A stretch of DNA of 44,524 nucleotides from a virus, in IMG/VR virus record IMGVR_UViG_3300036402_000117, positions 1 to 44,524 of that record; one strand, written 5' to 3'. Shown here piece after piece: positions 2,511 to 44,350 of the stretch (positions are counted from its first letter, which is position 1; each line of letters begins with the position of its first letter). The notes under the pieces are model-generated. The model saw nothing but the letters and a program-made list of their open reading frames with translations, ran no database searches and was not told the origin of the DNA. Made by a program: the position numbers and the translations under genes.

Positions 2511-2782
2511 GCCGCACCCCTACGGTCCGCGAGCTCGAGGTGCTCCGCTACCTCGCGGCCGGCATGTACATCCAGCTCGCGCCGACGAAGCAGCGCCTGC
2601 ACCCGGTCATCGCCAAGAACGTCACGGTGATCTCGATCCAGCCGGCCACGCTCACCGCGCTCTACGTCGCGGGCTGGGTGGACGCGAAGTTTGCCGGCAA
2701 GGCGACGATCACCCACGCCGGGCGCGACGTCGCCGAGTGCAAGACGTTCGTGCGGGCCTTCGCCGAAGGCGCGCAGCCATGA
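2507..2782 (+). CDS. Small winged-helix-like hypothetical protein
   Basis: A 91-aa protein from ATG 2507 (ATGA overlap). It opens with a helix TVRELEVLRYLAAG and has a later segment ATLTALYVAGWVDAKFAGKATITHAGRD. That second part resembles the recognition helix, wing and terminal 'T-AGR' stretch of small winged-helix phage proteins. No enzyme motif is visible. A DNA-binding or structural role is inferred. Confidence 0.55.
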   Translation: MSRTPTVRELEVLRYLAAGMYIQLAPTKQRLHPVIAKNVTVISIQPATLTALYVAGWVDAKFAGKATITHAGRDVAECKTFVRAFAEGAQP

Positions 2783-3177
2783 GCCGCCCCGGCGAGCAGA
2801 ATGCGCGATGGAAGGGCGGGACGTGGGTGAACAGCTCCGGCTACGTCATGGTGCTGGTCGGCCGCGAGCACCCGATGGCCTCCTGCCGGGCGTACGCCAA
2901 GCGCTGTCGCCTCGTGTGCTACGAGACGCACGGCCCGCCGCCCACGCCGGAGCACCACGCGCACCACATCAACGGCGACAAGACGGACGACCGGCCGGAG
3001 AACCTCGAGTGGCGTGAGGCCTCCGACCACGGCCGCCACCACCTGAGCTCCAAGCGCGCCAAGGAAATCGGCGCCAAGGGCGGGCGAAAAACCGCGCGGC
3101 TGCGGCGGCGTGCGCAGCGAGAGCAGAAGCACCAGGCGCCCCGCCGCCCGAAGAAGCGAACCCCTGCAGCAGCCTGA
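2779..3177 (+). CDS. HNH endonuclease (HNH_3 type)
   Basis: A 132-aa homing-type nuclease starting at ATG 2779 (ATGA overlap). The HNH core is clear: HHAHHINGDKTDDRPENLEW at residues 59-78, with the metal-binding His pair, the Asp after Asn-Gly, and the late Asn. The family cuts DNA with a single divalent metal. The N-terminal GYVMVLV segment is typical of the type found in free-standing phage HNH genes. The C-terminus is an Arg/Lys-rich tail (about 95-132) that may bind DNA. It could be a mobile intruder or have a replication role; the context does not decide. Confidence 0.8.
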   Translation: MSRPGEQNARWKGGTWVNSSGYVMVLVGREHPMASCRAYAKRCRLVCYETHGPPPTPEHHAHHINGDKTDDRPENLEWREASDHGRHHLSSKRAKEIGAKGGRKTARLRRRAQREQKHQAPRRPKKRTPAAA

Positions 3178-4510: not shown

Positions 4511-4993
4511 ATGTCAGACGCAATCAACTTCGACGCGACGACCGTCGCGCCACGCTCGACCCCCGACCCAGTCCCGAACGACTGGTACCGCGCGATGATC
4601 GTCGAGAGCGCGGTGAAGCCCACCAAGAAGCAGGACGGCAGGTACCTGCAGCTCGACTGGCAGATCCTCGATGGCCCGCACAAGGGCCGCATCGTCTGGG
4701 ATCGGCTGAACGTGCAGAACCCGAACGAGACCGCGCAGAAGATCGGCCAGGAGCAGCTGTCCGCGGTGTGCCACACGCTCGGCGTGCTCAAGCTCCAGAA
4801 CTCGTCGCAGCTGCACAACATCCCCGCGATGATCAAGGTCGTGGTGAAGCAGGACCCGGGACAGGATCCGCAGAACGAGGTGAAGAAGTACAAGGCGATC
4901 GAGGGGGCCGCCCCGGCAGCCAAGACGGCGCCCGCCGGTGCACCGCCCGCCGCAGCCGCCGCGCCGGCGTGGGCCCAGAAGAAGGCCAGCTGA
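4511..4993 (+). CDS. DUF669 family protein, probable ssDNA-binding partner
   Basis: A 160-aa protein with the DUF669 signature: FDATTV near the start, PVPNDWYRAMIVESAVKPTK (about 20-39), then YLQLDWQILDGPHKGRIVWDRL, and a later VKVVVKQDPG. DUF669 proteins are beta-barrel-like and are commonly encoded beside Sak4-type ATPases and helicases, where an SSB-like role has been proposed. The last 30 residues are Ala/Pro-rich and end in AWAQKKAS, a flexible tail. ATG 4511 is preceded by AAGGA at 4493-4497. Confidence is high for the family, lower for the job. Confidence 0.8.
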   Translation: MSDAINFDATTVAPRSTPDPVPNDWYRAMIVESAVKPTKKQDGRYLQLDWQILDGPHKGRIVWDRLNVQNPNETAQKIGQEQLSAVCHTLGVLKLQNSSQLHNIPAMIKVVVKQDPGQDPQNEVKKYKAIEGAAPAAKTAPAGAPPAAAAAPAWAQKKAS

Positions 4994-8540: not shown

Positions 8541-9115
8541 CCGGCAACGGCTGGACAACCTGCACGGTCGACGGGGGAGTGGTCTACGCCTTCCACGTCC
8601 CGTGCCGTCGCGCCTTCATCGTGCCGCAGGAGCACGTCTGTTCCTCCCCACCCAGCGGCGAGACAGCCCCCTGGTCGTCACCGTTCGGCTGTCCGGACAC
8701 CTGTAAGGCCGAGGTGCGCGGCTATCCGGCGCCGTGCATCGGGAACCCGGTCGCGCCGGCGGGCTGTATCCACCACGCCGAGCGGAGTGCGGCGGTGCTC
8801 GCGAAGCTCGACGAGCAGGCGGCGGCTCGCCTGGATCGGATGAGCGCGTGGAGTGATCGCCTCTGGGCCGAAGCGGAGCGCGTGGCGGCTGGGCAGGATG
8901 GCGCGGCGGTCGTTCGCGCACTGGCCGAGGCGAGCCGCGCGGTCTGGGCTGCGGGCCTGGATCACGCCTTCGCCGCGATGCGTGCCGAACTGCTCGAGGA
9001 CGAGATGTCTCTGGAGACTGCGACGGCCTTCGATGCGACGTGGCTGTCCGTGTTCGTCGTGACCCTGCATGTCGCCTCCTCCCCTCCCCCCGCGGACCGC
9101 CCCAATGCGCGCTGA
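8537..9115 (+). CDS. Hypothetical protein
   Basis: A 192-aa protein from ATG 8537 (ATGA overlap with the previous stop). The N-terminal third has scattered Cys (TCTVDGG, PCRR, HVCSS, GCPDTC, PCIG, GCIHH). The remainder is predicted to be mostly helical (AKLDEQAAARLDRM, RALAEASRAVWAAG). No known family is recognised. It overlaps the next gene by 11 bases. Confidence 0.5.
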   Translation: MTGNGWTTCTVDGGVVYAFHVPCRRAFIVPQEHVCSSPPSGETAPWSSPFGCPDTCKAEVRGYPAPCIGNPVAPAGCIHHAERSAAVLAKLDEQAAARLDRMSAWSDRLWAEAERVAAGQDGAAVVRALAEASRAVWAAGLDHAFAAMRAELLEDEMSLETATAFDATWLSVFVVTLHVASSPPPADRPNAR

Positions 9116-10370: not shown

Positions 10371-12830
10371 GTGAATATGCCCACCGCAGCAGCGGCCGCT
10401 ATCCTCACTCCACAGGGGGGCTTCGAGGCGGATCCGCGCGAGCTCGACACGTTCGTCCAGGCGCTCTTCCGCTACGCGGACGCCGGGGCGCACGTGTCGT
10501 GGCGTGCCTTCCGCGACGATCGGAAGGACGCCCCGCCCGTGTTCATCGAGTCGTCGCACGTGCTCGAGGATGGCCTCGGGCACCTCGCCACGGCGGCCAC
10601 GTACTGGGCGACGAAGGCGGCGCAGCATCCTGACCCGGTCGTCTTCTGCCCACCGATCGCCACCTTCACGAGTGCCAAGCGCGCCCGCGAGATCGATCTC
10701 GCCAACGGGCTCGCGCTCTCCGTCGAATGCGACGCGCACCCACAGCGCGCGCGCCAGCTACTCGAGCAGCTCCTGGGACCGGCGACCGTGGTCGTCGCCT
10801 CGGGCGGGGTCTGGAGTGATCCAGTGTCCCAGGAGCTCCACGAGAAGCTCCACCTGCACTGGCGCCTGGCCGAGCCGACGTCGGACGCCGGCGAGCACGC
10901 CCGCCTCAAGCGCGCGCGGATCCTCGCCACTCGGCTCGCCGGCGGGGACGCCACCAACATCCCCGCGGTGCATCCCATCCGGTGGCCGGGCTCCTGGCAC
11001 CGGAAGGCGAGCCCGCGCCTGGCGCGCATCGTCGTGGCCGACCTTGCCCGCGAGGTCACGCTCACCGACGCCCTCGCGCAGCTGGAGCTGGCGGCGGTCG
11101 CGCTCCCGCCGGACAAACGAGAGCAAATCCCCACGGAATCGTGGGGAACCCACGAGGGTGTGGGAAACCCAACGGCGGAGCTCGTCCGCCAGCTGATGAC
11201 GGGCGAGGCCATACACGCGCCGCTCTGTGCACTCGCGTGGCGCTACCTCCTGGGCGGCATGTCCGACGCGATGGCCGTCACCACGCTGCGCGGGATGCTC
11301 GACGCCATCCCCGTGGCCGTGCGCGGCGAGCCAGGGCGCTGGGAGGGGCATTATGGCGACGTGCCGCGCACCGTGCGCTCAGCGCGGGAGAAGATCGGCC
11401 ACGCGCCACCCGGCGGGCAGGCGGCCGACCTCGGGGACTTCGTCGCGAGCTTTACCCCCTCGCCGCCGGCGATCATCATTGCGCGGCCCGCCGATCGGCC
11501 GATGGAGATCCCGGCCGAGCTGCTCATCCCGCCCGGCGTCCTGGGCGACGTCGCGCGCTACGGGGTGGAGACCGCCGTCCGGCCGGTGCCGATCTTCGCC
11601 GCCCAGGCGGCGCTCGCGCTCGGGAGCGTGGTGCTCGGCCGCCGGTACGTCACCTCACAGCGCAACTACGCCTCGCTCTACTTCCTCAACGTGGCCAAGT
11701 CGGGCACGGGGAAGGAGGAGGCGAAGACGACGATCGAGCGCGTGCTCACCGCCGCCGGCGTGCGGCGCCTCGTGGGCCCATCGGCCTACTCCTCCGGCAA
11801 CGCCGTGTTCTCGGCGCTCCTTCGGAAGCCGGCGCACATCGCGATCATCGACGAGTTCGGGAAGTACATGGAGGCCGCGGCGAAGGAGTACGACAACTAC
11901 CGCGCGGACACGATCAAGCAGCTGATGGAGGCCTTCGGGCGCGTGCACGGCGACATGGCCACGCCGCAGTTCTCGACGATGACCATGTCGGCCGCCGCCG
12001 GCGCGGACATCGAGCCCAAGGTGATCCAGCGGCCGTCGATCACCCTCCTCGCCATGACGACGCCGAGCTCGTTCTACGACGCGATGCGAAGCGCCCGGAT
12101 CCAGGACGGCTTCCTCAACCGGTTCATCATCGCCGAGCATGCCGCGCCCCGCACGCCCGCCGGCGAATGGAGGGACATTCCCGTGCCCCAGGCCGCGGTC
12201 GACTGGGTGCACCAGATGCTCGCGCCGCACTGTCAGATGGACATGGGCGTCCTGGTCGACGGGATCCCCGACGCGGCCCTGGTGGAGTTCACGCCCGACG
12301 CCCTCGAGCGGACGAAGCTCTTCGAGCGGAAGATGCTGGCCCTCTCCGAGCAGCTCGATCGCGAGGGGCTCGGTGACATGCCGATCCGCTCCCGCGAGCT
12401 CGGGATGCGGCTCTCGCTCATCTGCGCGCTCTCGGACACGCCGGACACGCCGACGATCACGACCGACATCGTCGACTGGTGCTTCAGCTACGTCGAGTTT
12501 TTCCTCCACCAGACGCTTCACTCGCTGCGCACCCGCGTCGCCGACTCCACCACCGAGCGGACGCGCAACCAGGTGCTGGCCGCCATCCGGCTCGCCGGCG
12601 AGCGCGGCGTCACGAATCGTGACCTCAACCGCGGCAAGGCGTTCATCGGGCTCCCGAAGCGCGATCGCCAGGACGCGATCGAGTCGCTGCTCGCCGCGGA
12701 GCTCGTGGCCTGGGCGACCGTGCAGACCCCAGGACGTGCCCGCGTCGCGCTCGTCGCCCTCGATGACGCTGGCGCAGAGCCCAGCCTGGCACTACACTCG
12801 GAATCCCACCCTCAAGACGATGCTGCGTAA
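10371..12830 (+). CDS. Primase-helicase: RepB-type primase domain plus DUF3987-like ATPase
   Basis: An 819-aa replication protein. The N-terminal part (about 90-235) resembles the RepB/AEP primase fold: SVECDAHP with the catalytic-type acid, GPATVVVASGG, then ELHEKLHLHWRL and RWPGSWHRK. The C-terminal half (about 370-740) is a DUF3987-like ATPase with an atypical Walker A, AKSGTGK at 442-448, and Walker B IAIIDEFGK at 491-498, followed by an NRF motif. It would prime and unwind at the phage origin, which fits the iteron array immediately downstream. Start is GTG 10371 or ATG 10377. Only about 25 bases separate it from the opposed gene. Confidence 0.8.
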   Translation: MNMPTAAAAAILTPQGGFEADPRELDTFVQALFRYADAGAHVSWRAFRDDRKDAPPVFIESSHVLEDGLGHLATAATYWATKAAQHPDPVVFCPPIATFTSAKRAREIDLANGLALSVECDAHPQRARQLLEQLLGPATVVVASGGVWSDPVSQELHEKLHLHWRLAEPTSDAGEHARLKRARILATRLAGGDATNIPAVHPIRWPGSWHRKASPRLARIVVADLAREVTLTDALAQLELAAVALPPDKREQIPTESWGTHEGVGNPTAELVRQLMTGEAIHAPLCALAWRYLLGGMSDAMAVTTLRGMLDAIPVAVRGEPGRWEGHYGDVPRTVRSAREKIGHAPPGGQAADLGDFVASFTPSPPAIIIARPADRPMEIPAELLIPPGVLGDVARYGVETAVRPVPIFAAQAALALGSVVLGRRYVTSQRNYASLYFLNVAKSGTGKEEAKTTIERVLTAAGVRRLVGPSAYSSGNAVFSALLRKPAHIAIIDEFGKYMEAAAKEYDNYRADTIKQLMEAFGRVHGDMATPQFSTMTMSAAAGADIEPKVIQRPSITLLAMTTPSSFYDAMRSARIQDGFLNRFIIAEHAAPRTPAGEWRDIPVPQAAVDWVHQMLAPHCQMDMGVLVDGIPDAALVEFTPDALERTKLFERKMLALSEQLDREGLGDMPIRSRELGMRLSLICALSDTPDTPTITTDIVDWCFSYVEFFLHQTLHSLRTRVADSTTERTRNQVLAAIRLAGERGVTNRDLNRGKAFIGLPKRDRQDAIESLLAAELVAWATVQTPGRARVALVALDDAGAEPSLALHSESHPQDDAA

Positions 12831-12845
12831 GCACTTGCGGCACTC

Positions 12846-13121
12846 CTTCTGGCATCACCCCACCCCGCGCCCATGCCAGAAGCCCTCATTTCAACTTCCA
12901 TGATTCCAACGCGTTACACGATCCGCTGACCCTTCTGGCGCTTCTGGCACTTCTGGCGGGGGGTAGGCCCCTCTCTAATAGAGGCGGGAGAAACGTGTAC
13001 CCCATGCCATAAGCACCAGAAGTACCAGAAGGTATTACTCACTTATCTAACTCTCTAATTACTCAACGACTTAGCCACCCTCCCCTTCTGGCACCGCTCG
13101 ACTCCCCTTCCCTGCCAGAAG
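12846..13121. repeat. Symmetrical iteron array, candidate replication origin
   Basis: This gene-free stretch (12831-13149) carries ten copies of a 9-bp unit CTTCTGGCA or its complement. An outer inverted pair sits at 12846-12854 and 12874-12882. Three head-to-tail units start at 12932, 12941 and 12950. Three in the opposite sense lie around 13005-13031 (the first is degenerate). A second inverted pair is at 13085-13093 and 13113-13121. Both outer pairs span exactly 37 bp with 19-base loops. An AT-rich segment lies at about 13033-13075, suited to strand opening. Position after the primase-helicase supports an origin; an operator array is the alternative. Confidence 0.7.
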
Positions 13122-13149
13122 TGACCGAATCCCTCCCCAGAGGATCCCG

Positions 13150-13587
13150 GTGGTTCAGCCGACGACACTCACGCTCTCCCTGCCAGAGCCGCCCTCGATC
13201 AACCAGATGCTGGAGCTGGCCATGAAGCGCACGAGGCGCTCCCGGTCCGGCGGCTGGATGAAACGGGCGGTGCCCGGCATCGTGTACGACCAGGCGCACG
13301 AGGCGTACGACCTCCAGTGCCTCGCCATGGCCCGCACAGCCGATCTCCTGCCACGCTGGGCGCCCTGGCGCCGCTGGGAGATCAGCAGCGTGCACTTTCG
13401 CTTACATGGGCTCCGAGACCTGCCTGAGCTGATGGCCGGCTTGAAGTGGCCCGTCGACTTCCTGGTGGCGCAACGCTACGTCGTCGACGACAGCCCCCGG
13501 GAGCTGCTCGCCGTCTGTCTGCCGACGCAGGCGATCGCTCGAGCGAACCGAGGGGTCACCATCACGATCCGTGAGGTGGCGGCGTGA
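13150..13587 (+). CDS. RusA-like Holliday junction resolvase, divergent
   Basis: A 145-aa protein from GTG 13150, with AGAGGA at 13138-13143. It opens with LTLSLPEPPSINQML, the beta strand and P-x-S-x-N start typical of RusA. A later KWPVDFLVAQRYVVDDSPREL carries acidic residues where RusA has its metal-binding Asp cluster. RusA cuts four-way junctions during phage recombination. The match is to pattern and size (RusA is about 120 aa), and not every catalytic Asp can be assigned, so this is a moderate call. Confidence 0.55.
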   Translation: MVQPTTLTLSLPEPPSINQMLELAMKRTRRSRSGGWMKRAVPGIVYDQAHEAYDLQCLAMARTADLLPRWAPWRRWEISSVHFRLHGLRDLPELMAGLKWPVDFLVAQRYVVDDSPRELLAVCLPTQAIARANRGVTITIREVAA

Positions 13588-42831: not shown

Positions 42832-43112
42832 TGCCGACTCCGGACGCCACCGAGCGCATGGCCCGCATCCGCGCGCGCGCGACTGCGCACGACGAAGCGA
42901 TCGAGTCGGTGAAGTGGCCGACGGCCGCGCAGCTCGCCGCGCGCTGGAATGTCAGCCTGACCACGGTCTACGAGATCCCGCGAGAGCGGCTGCCCTACAA
43001 GGAGTTCGGCGGCGGCCAGAAGCCGCGCCGCCGCTATCGCCCGACCGACGTCGCCGCCTTCGAGGCCGACGACACCGCGTACACCACCGCCAAGCCGGCG
43101 AAGAGCGCCTGA
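42831..43112 (+). CDS. Excisionase-like small HTH protein
   Basis: A 93-aa protein. The HTH is PTAAQLAARWNVSLTTVYEIPRERLPYKEFGGGQKPRRRYRPTDVAAFE, a MerR/Xis-type helix with a wing. Its position directly before the integrase (shared ATG/TGA) is typical of an excisionase that turns integration into excision. The assignment rests on fold and neighbour. Confidence 0.65.
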   Translation: MPTPDATERMARIRARATAHDEAIESVKWPTAAQLAARWNVSLTTVYEIPRERLPYKEFGGGQKPRRRYRPTDVAAFEADDTAYTTAKPAKSA

Positions 43113-44350
43113 TGTACAAGAACTCGGCGACCGGCTATTGGGAGGCGGACATCCGACGCGAGAAGATCGCGCCGCGTCTGCACGTCTCCTACGGCACGAA
43201 GAAGAAAGACGAGGCGGCGCGTCTGCACGCGGCGGTCCTCCGGCTGTTCAAGGAGGGCAACCGGGACGCCATCGATGCGCTCCGCGCGGGGCGTCTGCCG
43301 GTCGGCGAGATCGCGCGGCTCCAGGAGGAGGGGAAGCCCCTTTTCGCGCCGCCCGTCGCTGCCGGCCCGCTGCCCTGGCCGAGCGTGCGCACGGCCGTCG
43401 AGGAGTACCTGGCGTGGCTCGACACCAATCCGCGCAAGACCGCGGGCACGCACCGGTTCGCGAAGACCATGTGCGATCGCTTCGTCAACTGGCTGGGCGA
43501 CGATGCCGAGCTCCCGCTCGACCAGATCCCGACGCGACGCGTGAGCGACTATCAGGCGTCGCTCATCAAGGGCGAGGCCGCGGTCAACACCGTCACCGCG
43601 GCGGTCTGGCGCGTGGGGACGGTGTTCCGCTGGCACCGCGACCGCGAGCTGCGGGAGGCCCAGGAGGAGAAGCGCACGCCGCGGTTCCTGCACGTCCCAC
43701 TGGATCCGGACACGATCTCGACGGCGCGCACCCATCGGACGCGCTATCTCACCGAGGCAGAGGCCGAGCGACTGCTCGCCGCGTGCCCGGGCCGGCTCCT
43801 CTGCCCCGTCGCCATCGGACTCTTCGCCGGGCTCCGGATCGACGAGGTGATGCACCTGCGCCCGGCGTACGACGTCGACCTCACCCTCGGCCTACTGACC
43901 GTCCAGGAGCAGCCGGGCTGGCGCCCGAAGTCGGGGAAGCGGCGCTTCGTGCCGATCGCCGCACCCCTGCGCCTACTCCTCGAGGCGCAGCTCGCGCGCT
44001 ACGCCTCCGAGGAATGGCTCGTACCGTCCTCGGTCGACGCGACGCGGCCGCAGAACCCGAACAGCTTCATGGTGCACTTCCGGCGGATCGTCGAAGACGC
44101 CGAGCTCGTCGCGGGCCGGAAGGACCCGAAGGGCGTCGTTTTCCACACGCTGCGCCATACGTTCGCGAGCTGGCTCGCCACCCGCGGCGTCGACCTGTAC
44201 ACGATCGCCCAGCTGCTCGGCAACTCGCTCAAGCAGGTGGAGCAGACGTACGCGCACCTCTCTCCCGACTTCAAGGCGGCGGCGATCAGCAAGCTGGCCG
44301 GCGTTGTGGCGGTGCCGTCCCTGCCGGATCGGACGGAGGGCGGCGCATGA
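43112..44350 (+). CDS. int: Tyrosine integrase
   Basis: A 412-aa site-specific recombinase. The N-terminal arm-binding and core-binding domains (about 1-205) precede the catalytic domain, with Arg242 (FAGLRIDEV), Lys273 (RPKSGKRR), His345-x-x-Arg348 (HTLRHTF) and Tyr380 (EQTYAHL). At the usual second-His position the protein has Asn371 (LLGNSLKQ), a known substitution. It lies about 75 bases from attR and would recombine attP with the host site at 126-150. Start is ATG 43112, overlapping the excisionase-like stop. Confidence 0.9.
   Translation: MYKNSATGYWEADIRREKIAPRLHVSYGTKKKDEAARLHAAVLRLFKEGNRDAIDALRAGRLPVGEIARLQEEGKPLFAPPVAAGPLPWPSVRTAVEEYLAWLDTNPRKTAGTHRFAKTMCDRFVNWLGDDAELPLDQIPTRRVSDYQASLIKGEAAVNTVTAAVWRVGTVFRWHRDRELREAQEEKRTPRFLHVPLDPDTISTARTHRTRYLTEAEAERLLAACPGRLLCPVAIGLFAGLRIDEVMHLRPAYDVDLTLGLLTVQEQPGWRPKSGKRRFVPIAAPLRLLLEAQLARYASEEWLVPSSVDATRPQNPNSFMVHFRRIVEDAELVAGRKDPKGVVFHTLRHTFASWLATRGVDLYTIAQLLGNSLKQVEQTYAHLSPDFKAAAISKLAGVVAVPSLPDRTEGGA

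What the first reader, a model, noticed from the sequence alone, without database searches (positions are those of the whole stretch)
12831..13149. Symmetrical 9-bp iteron array, candidate phage replication origin of a new type
Ten copies of CTTCTGGCA or its complement form a palindromic layout: an outer inverted pair, three head-to-tail units, three in reverse, and a second outer inverted pair. Both outer pairs span exactly 37 bp with 19-base loops. The triplets keep a 9-bp step, close to one helical turn short of strand alternation, so bound protein could wrap the DNA. An AT-rich stretch lies beside it, and the primase-helicase gene is directly upstream.
Basis: partly seen in the sequence, partly recalled or inferred. 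Interest (0 to 1): 0.85.

Follow-up and report, generated by a model that had tools for sequence, protein, structure and literature searches.

The report
Phage replication origin beside its initiator
A 320-base gap in a temperate phage genome holds a mirror-image array of short repeats that most likely marks where the phage starts copying its DNA, and relatives keep the spacing while rewriting the repeat, which suggests that each phage's own helicase reads its own private start signal.

Summary
The array is real and non-random: nine exact CTTCTGG cores in 290 bp, where shuffles give 4-6. It fills the gap directly after a DUF3987 primase-helicase gene (10371-12830), and the AT-richest 45 bp of the whole 44.5 kb window (13029-13073) lies inside it. 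The three nearest relatives found (60-66% identity) all carry an array in the same place. Two keep nearly the same spacing although spacers are only about 41% identical; L143 has a rewritten repeat (CTTTAGACA), and the third, L224, has inner blocks only with an unrelated repeat (GAATTGATC). Among 54 non-redundant relatives such arrays directly follow the gene in 10, against 1 of 747 control stretches. The protein is modelled as an MCM-like helicase with a C-terminal winged helix. Best explanation: a self-encoded replication origin bound by its own initiator helicase, working like SaPI/PICI rep-ori and phage P4 alpha-ori. 'New type' is too strong: it is a new variant of a known kind. Binding and replication start are not shown experimentally.

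The parts
10371..12830 (+). DUF3987 primase-helicase gene (P0001, 819 aa), proposed initiator
   Evidence: PF13148 2.3e-14, phrog_3022 'DNA primase' 2e-81
11535..12521 (+). MCM-like AAA+ helicase domain, residues 389-717
   Evidence: predicted model, Z 19.8 over 266 residues
12549..12758 (+). C-terminal winged helix, residues 727-796, proposed repeat reader
   Evidence: predicted fold; binding inferred
12834..12842 (+). degenerate eleventh repeat copy (2 mismatches)
   Evidence: position conserved in L143 and L144
12846..12882 (.). outer left inverted pair, 37 bp span
12932..12958 (+). inner left triplet, 9-bp step
12959..13004 (.). central spacer with a weak dyad
   Evidence: z -0.8 in the window; stronger hairpins in L143 and L224
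13005..13031 (-). inner right triplet, 9-bp step, degenerate copies
13029..13073 (.). AT-richest 45 bp of the window, candidate unwinding element
   Evidence: same in relatives
13085..13121 (.). outer right inverted pair, 37 bp span
13150..13587 (+). next gene, marks the right border; RusA-like by eye only
   Evidence: homologous gene follows the array in L224 and L143; no family hit

Best explanation
The array is the phage's own replication origin. The primase-helicase encoded just upstream binds the repeats, most likely through its C-terminal winged helix. Because the repeats form two oppositely facing blocks, two helicase rings would be placed facing opposite ways; the adjacent AT-rich stretch opens, the helicases load on the exposed strands, and the N-terminal primase module lays the first primers, giving two outgoing forks. 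Shown here: array, AT stretch, conserved geometry, linkage to this gene family, predicted helicase and winged-helix folds. Inferred: binding, ring loading, melting, priming there, and a bidirectional start.
For: Array directly 3' of the gene in the window and in L143, L144, L224. Spacing kept in window, L143 and L144 (9-9-55-9-9-62; 9-9-57-9-9-61; 9-9-55-9-9-61; the third right-hand unit of L144 is degenerate and placed by eye) while spacers are 41-42% and repeats 64-79% identical. Each genome's copies match their own consensus: nine near-exact CTTTAGACA in L143 and none in the window. Window and L144 share nearly the same repeat although the N-terminal modules differ (17% identity; Prim-Pol+PriCT-2 in L144) while helicase and winged helix are 76% and 58% identical. 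Inverted 7-mer arrays directly follow the gene in 10 of 54 non-redundant loci against 1 of 747 control stretches; AT-richest 45 bp within 600 bp downstream in 26 of 54, 4.5 expected. MCM-like helicase and winged-helix folds. Comparable helicases bind iterons downstream of their own gene by the C-terminal domain (PMC7581432).
Against: No binding or replication data. 42 of 54 relatives show no array within 420 bp by an exact 7-mer test; some have one 0.8-1.5 kb further on (L155, L172) and the test misses L224, which has one, so either the rule is not universal or the test is blunt. Repeat similarity tracks winged-helix identity only weakly (Mantel p 0.03). GC skew shows no clear turn here.
Confidence: 0.85

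Rival explanations
1. The array is an origin, but a protein other than the primase-helicase (another phage protein or a host initiator) reads the repeats and brings the helicase in.
For: Several genes of the replication region have no known function; binding by P0001 is not shown.
Against: Near-identical repeat goes with a shared helicase/winged-helix half in L144; the repeat changes between related phages, unlike a fixed host site. SSB and SF2 helicase are shared by all four phages, including L224 with an unrelated repeat.
Confidence: 0.1
2. The array is an operator cluster: a regulator binds it to control the next genes or the primase operon.
For: Inverted pairs resemble operators; winged-helix proteins are often regulators.
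Against: No promoter-like or terminator-like site in 12600-13400 (only sigma-70 types covered); next gene differs between relatives while the array stays with the primase-helicase; AT-richest stretch and 10-11 sites are more than an operator needs.
Confidence: 0.05
3. The array is a packaging start (cos or pac) site.
For: It lies between the replication genes and the terminase; in L160 the next gene is a likely small terminase subunit.
Against: Window terminase starts about 2.9 kb further on; no relative of it is found in the flanks of L143, L144 or L224, and L143 has its own unrelated terminase-like genes, yet the layout is kept. Elsewhere other genes such as VRR-NUC nucleases follow the array.
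Confidence: 0.03
4. The array is a partition or incompatibility site of a plasmid-like prophage.
For: Iteron-like repeats can serve copy control.
Against: An integrase is encoded (42914-44350); no ParA or ParB hit among the genes scanned, though not all genes were scanned.
Confidence: 0.02

Closest known systems
PICI/SaPI pri-rep-ori module (PMC6092414; SaPI and SCCmec Cch2 in PMC7581432)
   Same: Origin immediately 3' of the initiator gene; short iterons in two sets flanking an AT-rich region; the initiator is a helicase with a fused or separate primase; DNA recognition by the helicase's C-terminal domain (shown for Cch2).
   Different: Here in a temperate tailed phage with a DUF3987 helicase; 9-bp-step inner triplets facing each other around a central spacer plus outer 37-bp inverted pairs; AT-rich stretch off-centre.
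Phage P4 alpha protein and its origin repeats (as summarised in PMC4234260)
   Same: Primase-helicase fusion whose C-terminal winged helix binds origin repeats, followed by unwinding and priming.
   Different: P4 alpha has a Toprim primase; its repeats and layout were not compared here.
pRN1 plasmid ORF904 origin (PMC4234260)
   Same: Element needed for replication lies directly downstream of a prim-pol/helicase/winged-helix gene; sequence diverges while structure is kept.
   Different: A 100-nt stem-loop without iterons; SF3 helicase.
DUF3987 primase fusions (PMC5862659)
   Same: The protein family: predicted new helicase; a C-terminal winged helix was suggested to recognise origins in the PrimQH primases, some of which carry DUF3987.
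   Different: In the passages read no origin is named for DUF3987 proteins; this work offers a candidate.

Membership tests
PICI/SaPI-type rep-ori | origin immediately 3' of the initiator gene | tested here: met
   first exact repeat 16 bp after the stop codon
[quoted passage not shown]
   AT-richest 45 bp lies between the inner right triplet and the outer right pair
PICI/SaPI-type rep-ori | carried by a phage satellite that lacks its own virion genes | tested here: not met
   terminase, portal, major head protein and tape measure genes present, so the element is not a PICI
PICI/SaPI-type rep-ori | rep plus ori replicate a plasmid | not testable with these tools
   needs an experiment
DUF3987 (phrog_3022) helicase | profile match | tested here: met
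   2.3e-14 and 2e-81
DUF3987 (phrog_3022) helicase | conserved GK and DE residues of the ATPase | tested here: met
   G447, K448, D494, E495 invariant
MCM-like AAA+ helicase | AAA+ core fold like MCM | tested here: met
   Z 19.8, 3.3 A over 266 residues of the predicted model; fold only, activity untested
AEP primase (N-terminal module) | profile match to an AEP family | tested here: inconclusive
   no Pfam hit in window, L143 or L224; AEP-like motifs by eye; low model confidence there
P4 alpha type initiator | C-terminal winged helix that binds origin repeats | tested here: inconclusive
   fold predicted; binding not testable
lambda O type origin | iterons inside the initiator gene | tested here: not met
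   all listed repeats lie after the stop codon
pRN1 type origin | long stem-loop without iterons | tested here: not met
   iterons present; central hairpin weak, z -0.8

The most novel reading that the evidence does not exclude
DUF3987 proteins are a widespread class of phage self-loading, MCM-like initiator helicases. Each reads its own fast-changing repeat through the winged helix, and two inverted triplets with near-constant spacing place two rings facing opposite ways, a phage counterpart of MCM double-hexamer loading without ORC or Cdc6.
Probability: 0.3. Interest if true: 0.8.

Novelty: new variant of a known kind. Interest (0 to 1): 0.55.

Why it matters
It gives a concrete, testable origin for a large group of phage primase-helicases whose helicase was only predicted and for which I found no described origin. 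The layout extends an origin organisation that a 2018 paper called unique to PICIs (PMC6092414) to ordinary phages. Natural swaps and rewritten repeats offer ready-made pairs for finding which residues read the repeat, and for asking how an MCM-like helicase loads itself.

Tried and rejected
Searching phage records for the array DNA itself gave nothing useful. Scanning viral contigs for three tandem CTTCTGGNN mostly returned coding repeats of glycine-serine/threonine type, not origins. The exact outer pair found only a cyanobacterial-type virus contig without a primase in reach. The five characterised phages nearest in protein sequence lack CTTCTGG arrays, as expected if repeats are private. 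The single genome-contig scan found one distant relative (L223) without an evident array. N-terminal module: no match by Pfam, PDB sequences or comparison with the RepB-type primase of Moraxella phage Mcat11. GC skew is uninformative. No Rfam match. Central hairpin: weak in the window, so not used as a defining part. Papers on DUF3987 with phage or iterons gave no described origin.

Full report
What is there. The window is an IMG/VR virus record of 44,524 bases that encodes Sak4, SSB and an SF2 helicase, the primase-helicase, terminase, portal, head and tape-measure genes and an integrase, so it is a temperate tailed phage. Between the stop of the primase-helicase (12830) and the next likely start (13150) lie 319 bases with the described array. 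All positions were confirmed. Five of ten copies are exact CTTCTGGCA, four have one mismatch and one has two; an eleventh weak copy at 12834 is at a position conserved in two relatives. Nine exact CTTCTGG cores in 290 bp compare with at most 4-6 copies of any 7-mer in 100 shuffles of the whole window. The AT-richest 45 bp of the window is 13029-13073, inside the array.

Relatives. A profile scan of viral contigs found three close relatives of the protein: L144 (66% over residues 369-797), L143 (61%) and L224 (60%). All three have an array at the same place. Distances between units are 28-58-9-9-55-9-9-62-28 in the window and 28-62-9-9-57-9-9-61 in L143; L144 has 9-9-55-9-9-61 in its core, its third right-hand unit being degenerate and placed by eye. 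Over this stretch spacers are 41-42% identical and repeats 64-79%. The repeat differs: CTTCTGGCA, CTTTTGGCA (L144), CTTTAGACA (L143), and in L224, which has the inner blocks only, GAATTGATC. Geometry kept while the sequence changes in concert is what co-evolution of a DNA-binding protein with its sites would give.

Family survey. Among 54 non-redundant loci of this family, collected by protein and not by repeats, an inverted array of at least five identical 7-mers lies within 420 bp downstream of the gene in 10 (9 of 53 without the window), against 1 of 747 control stretches of the same contigs (p 9e-12); the AT-richest 45 bp lies within 600 bp downstream in 26 of 54, where 4.5 are expected. 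Arrays include GCCGACA (L160, L229), CGTCGAA (L227), GTGAAAA (L247) and, outside that survey, GCAGACA in Moraxella phage Mcat11 (L020) and AATTCCA in Sinorhizobium phage AP-16-3 (L019). In 42 of 54 the test found nothing adjacent; a few have arrays 0.8-1.5 kb further on, and degenerate arrays such as that of L224 are missed.

Which protein part reads the repeat. Window and L144 share nearly the same repeat but have different N-terminal modules: 17% identity, with Prim-Pol and PriCT-2 domains only in L144; helicase and winged helix are 76% and 58% identical. L224 shares the N-terminal module (61%) but not the repeat. So the C-terminal half is the better candidate. A Mantel test over 14 loci gives rho 0.31 (p 0.03) for winged-helix identity, 0.20 (p 0.14) for the helicase and 0.07 (p 0.28) for the N-terminus: weak but in the same direction. 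Iteron consensus words for that test were chosen by hand.

Structure. The model of P0001 (mean pLDDT 66; good from residue 380 on) shows an MCM-like AAA+ fold at 389-717 (Z 19.8, 3.3 A over 266 residues). Residues 715-805 folded alone give a winged helix (pLDDT 83; top matches are winged-helix domains). The N-terminus is modelled poorly and matches no family; by eye it has AEP-like motifs.

Mechanism. By analogy with SaPI Rep and SCCmec Cch2, which bind iterons directly downstream of their own genes, Cch2 through its C-terminal domain (PMC7581432), and with P4 alpha (PMC4234260), the likely sequence is: winged helix binds repeats, two rings assemble facing opposite ways, the AT-rich stretch opens, helicases load, primase primes. 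Only the sequence anatomy, its conservation and the predicted folds are shown; the steps are inference.

Rivals. A packaging site is unlikely: the terminase lies 2.9 kb on, L143 has unrelated terminase-like genes, and the next gene varies between relatives. An operator is unlikely for the same reason, and no promoter- or terminator-like site was found, though only sigma-70 types are covered. An origin read by another protein remains possible.

Novelty. [quoted passage not shown] DUF3987 was predicted to be a helicase, and a winged helix in such fusions was suggested to recognise origins (PMC5862659). No paper found describes an origin for DUF3987 phages, but the library lacks most subscription journals. 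I rate it a new variant of a known kind.

Noticed in passing
L068 about 4650-4780, L092 about 8640-8750, L101 about 1200-1320, L103 6591-6870: Non-coding CTTCTGGTA/GTACCAGAA arrays with the same three-forward, several-reverse layout directly downstream of a different primase-helicase family (phrog_1156, Prim-Pol + PriCT-2 + DUF5906).
   Followed up: partly
L142 310-490: Virus contig with a dense non-coding array of CTTCTGCC and TGCCAGAAG-like words, one pair with the same 37-bp span as in the window; no primase gene in reach.
   Followed up: no
L144, L145, L151, L020 and window 10371-11480: DUF3987 helicases carry interchangeable N-terminal modules: Prim-Pol with PriCT-2, Toprim, RepB-type with a zinc ribbon, or (window, L143, L224) one without any family match.
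   Followed up: partly
L172 and L175, about 1.5 kb after the primase stop: Ten copies of GCCATAA in two facing blocks, displaced by about 1.5 kb from the gene.
   Followed up: no
L160, L229, L256: Three related loci share the repeat GCCGACA, so repeats are not always private.
   Followed up: partly
window 2737-3177: HNH endonuclease gene just upstream of the Sak4 gene in the replication region.
   Followed up: no
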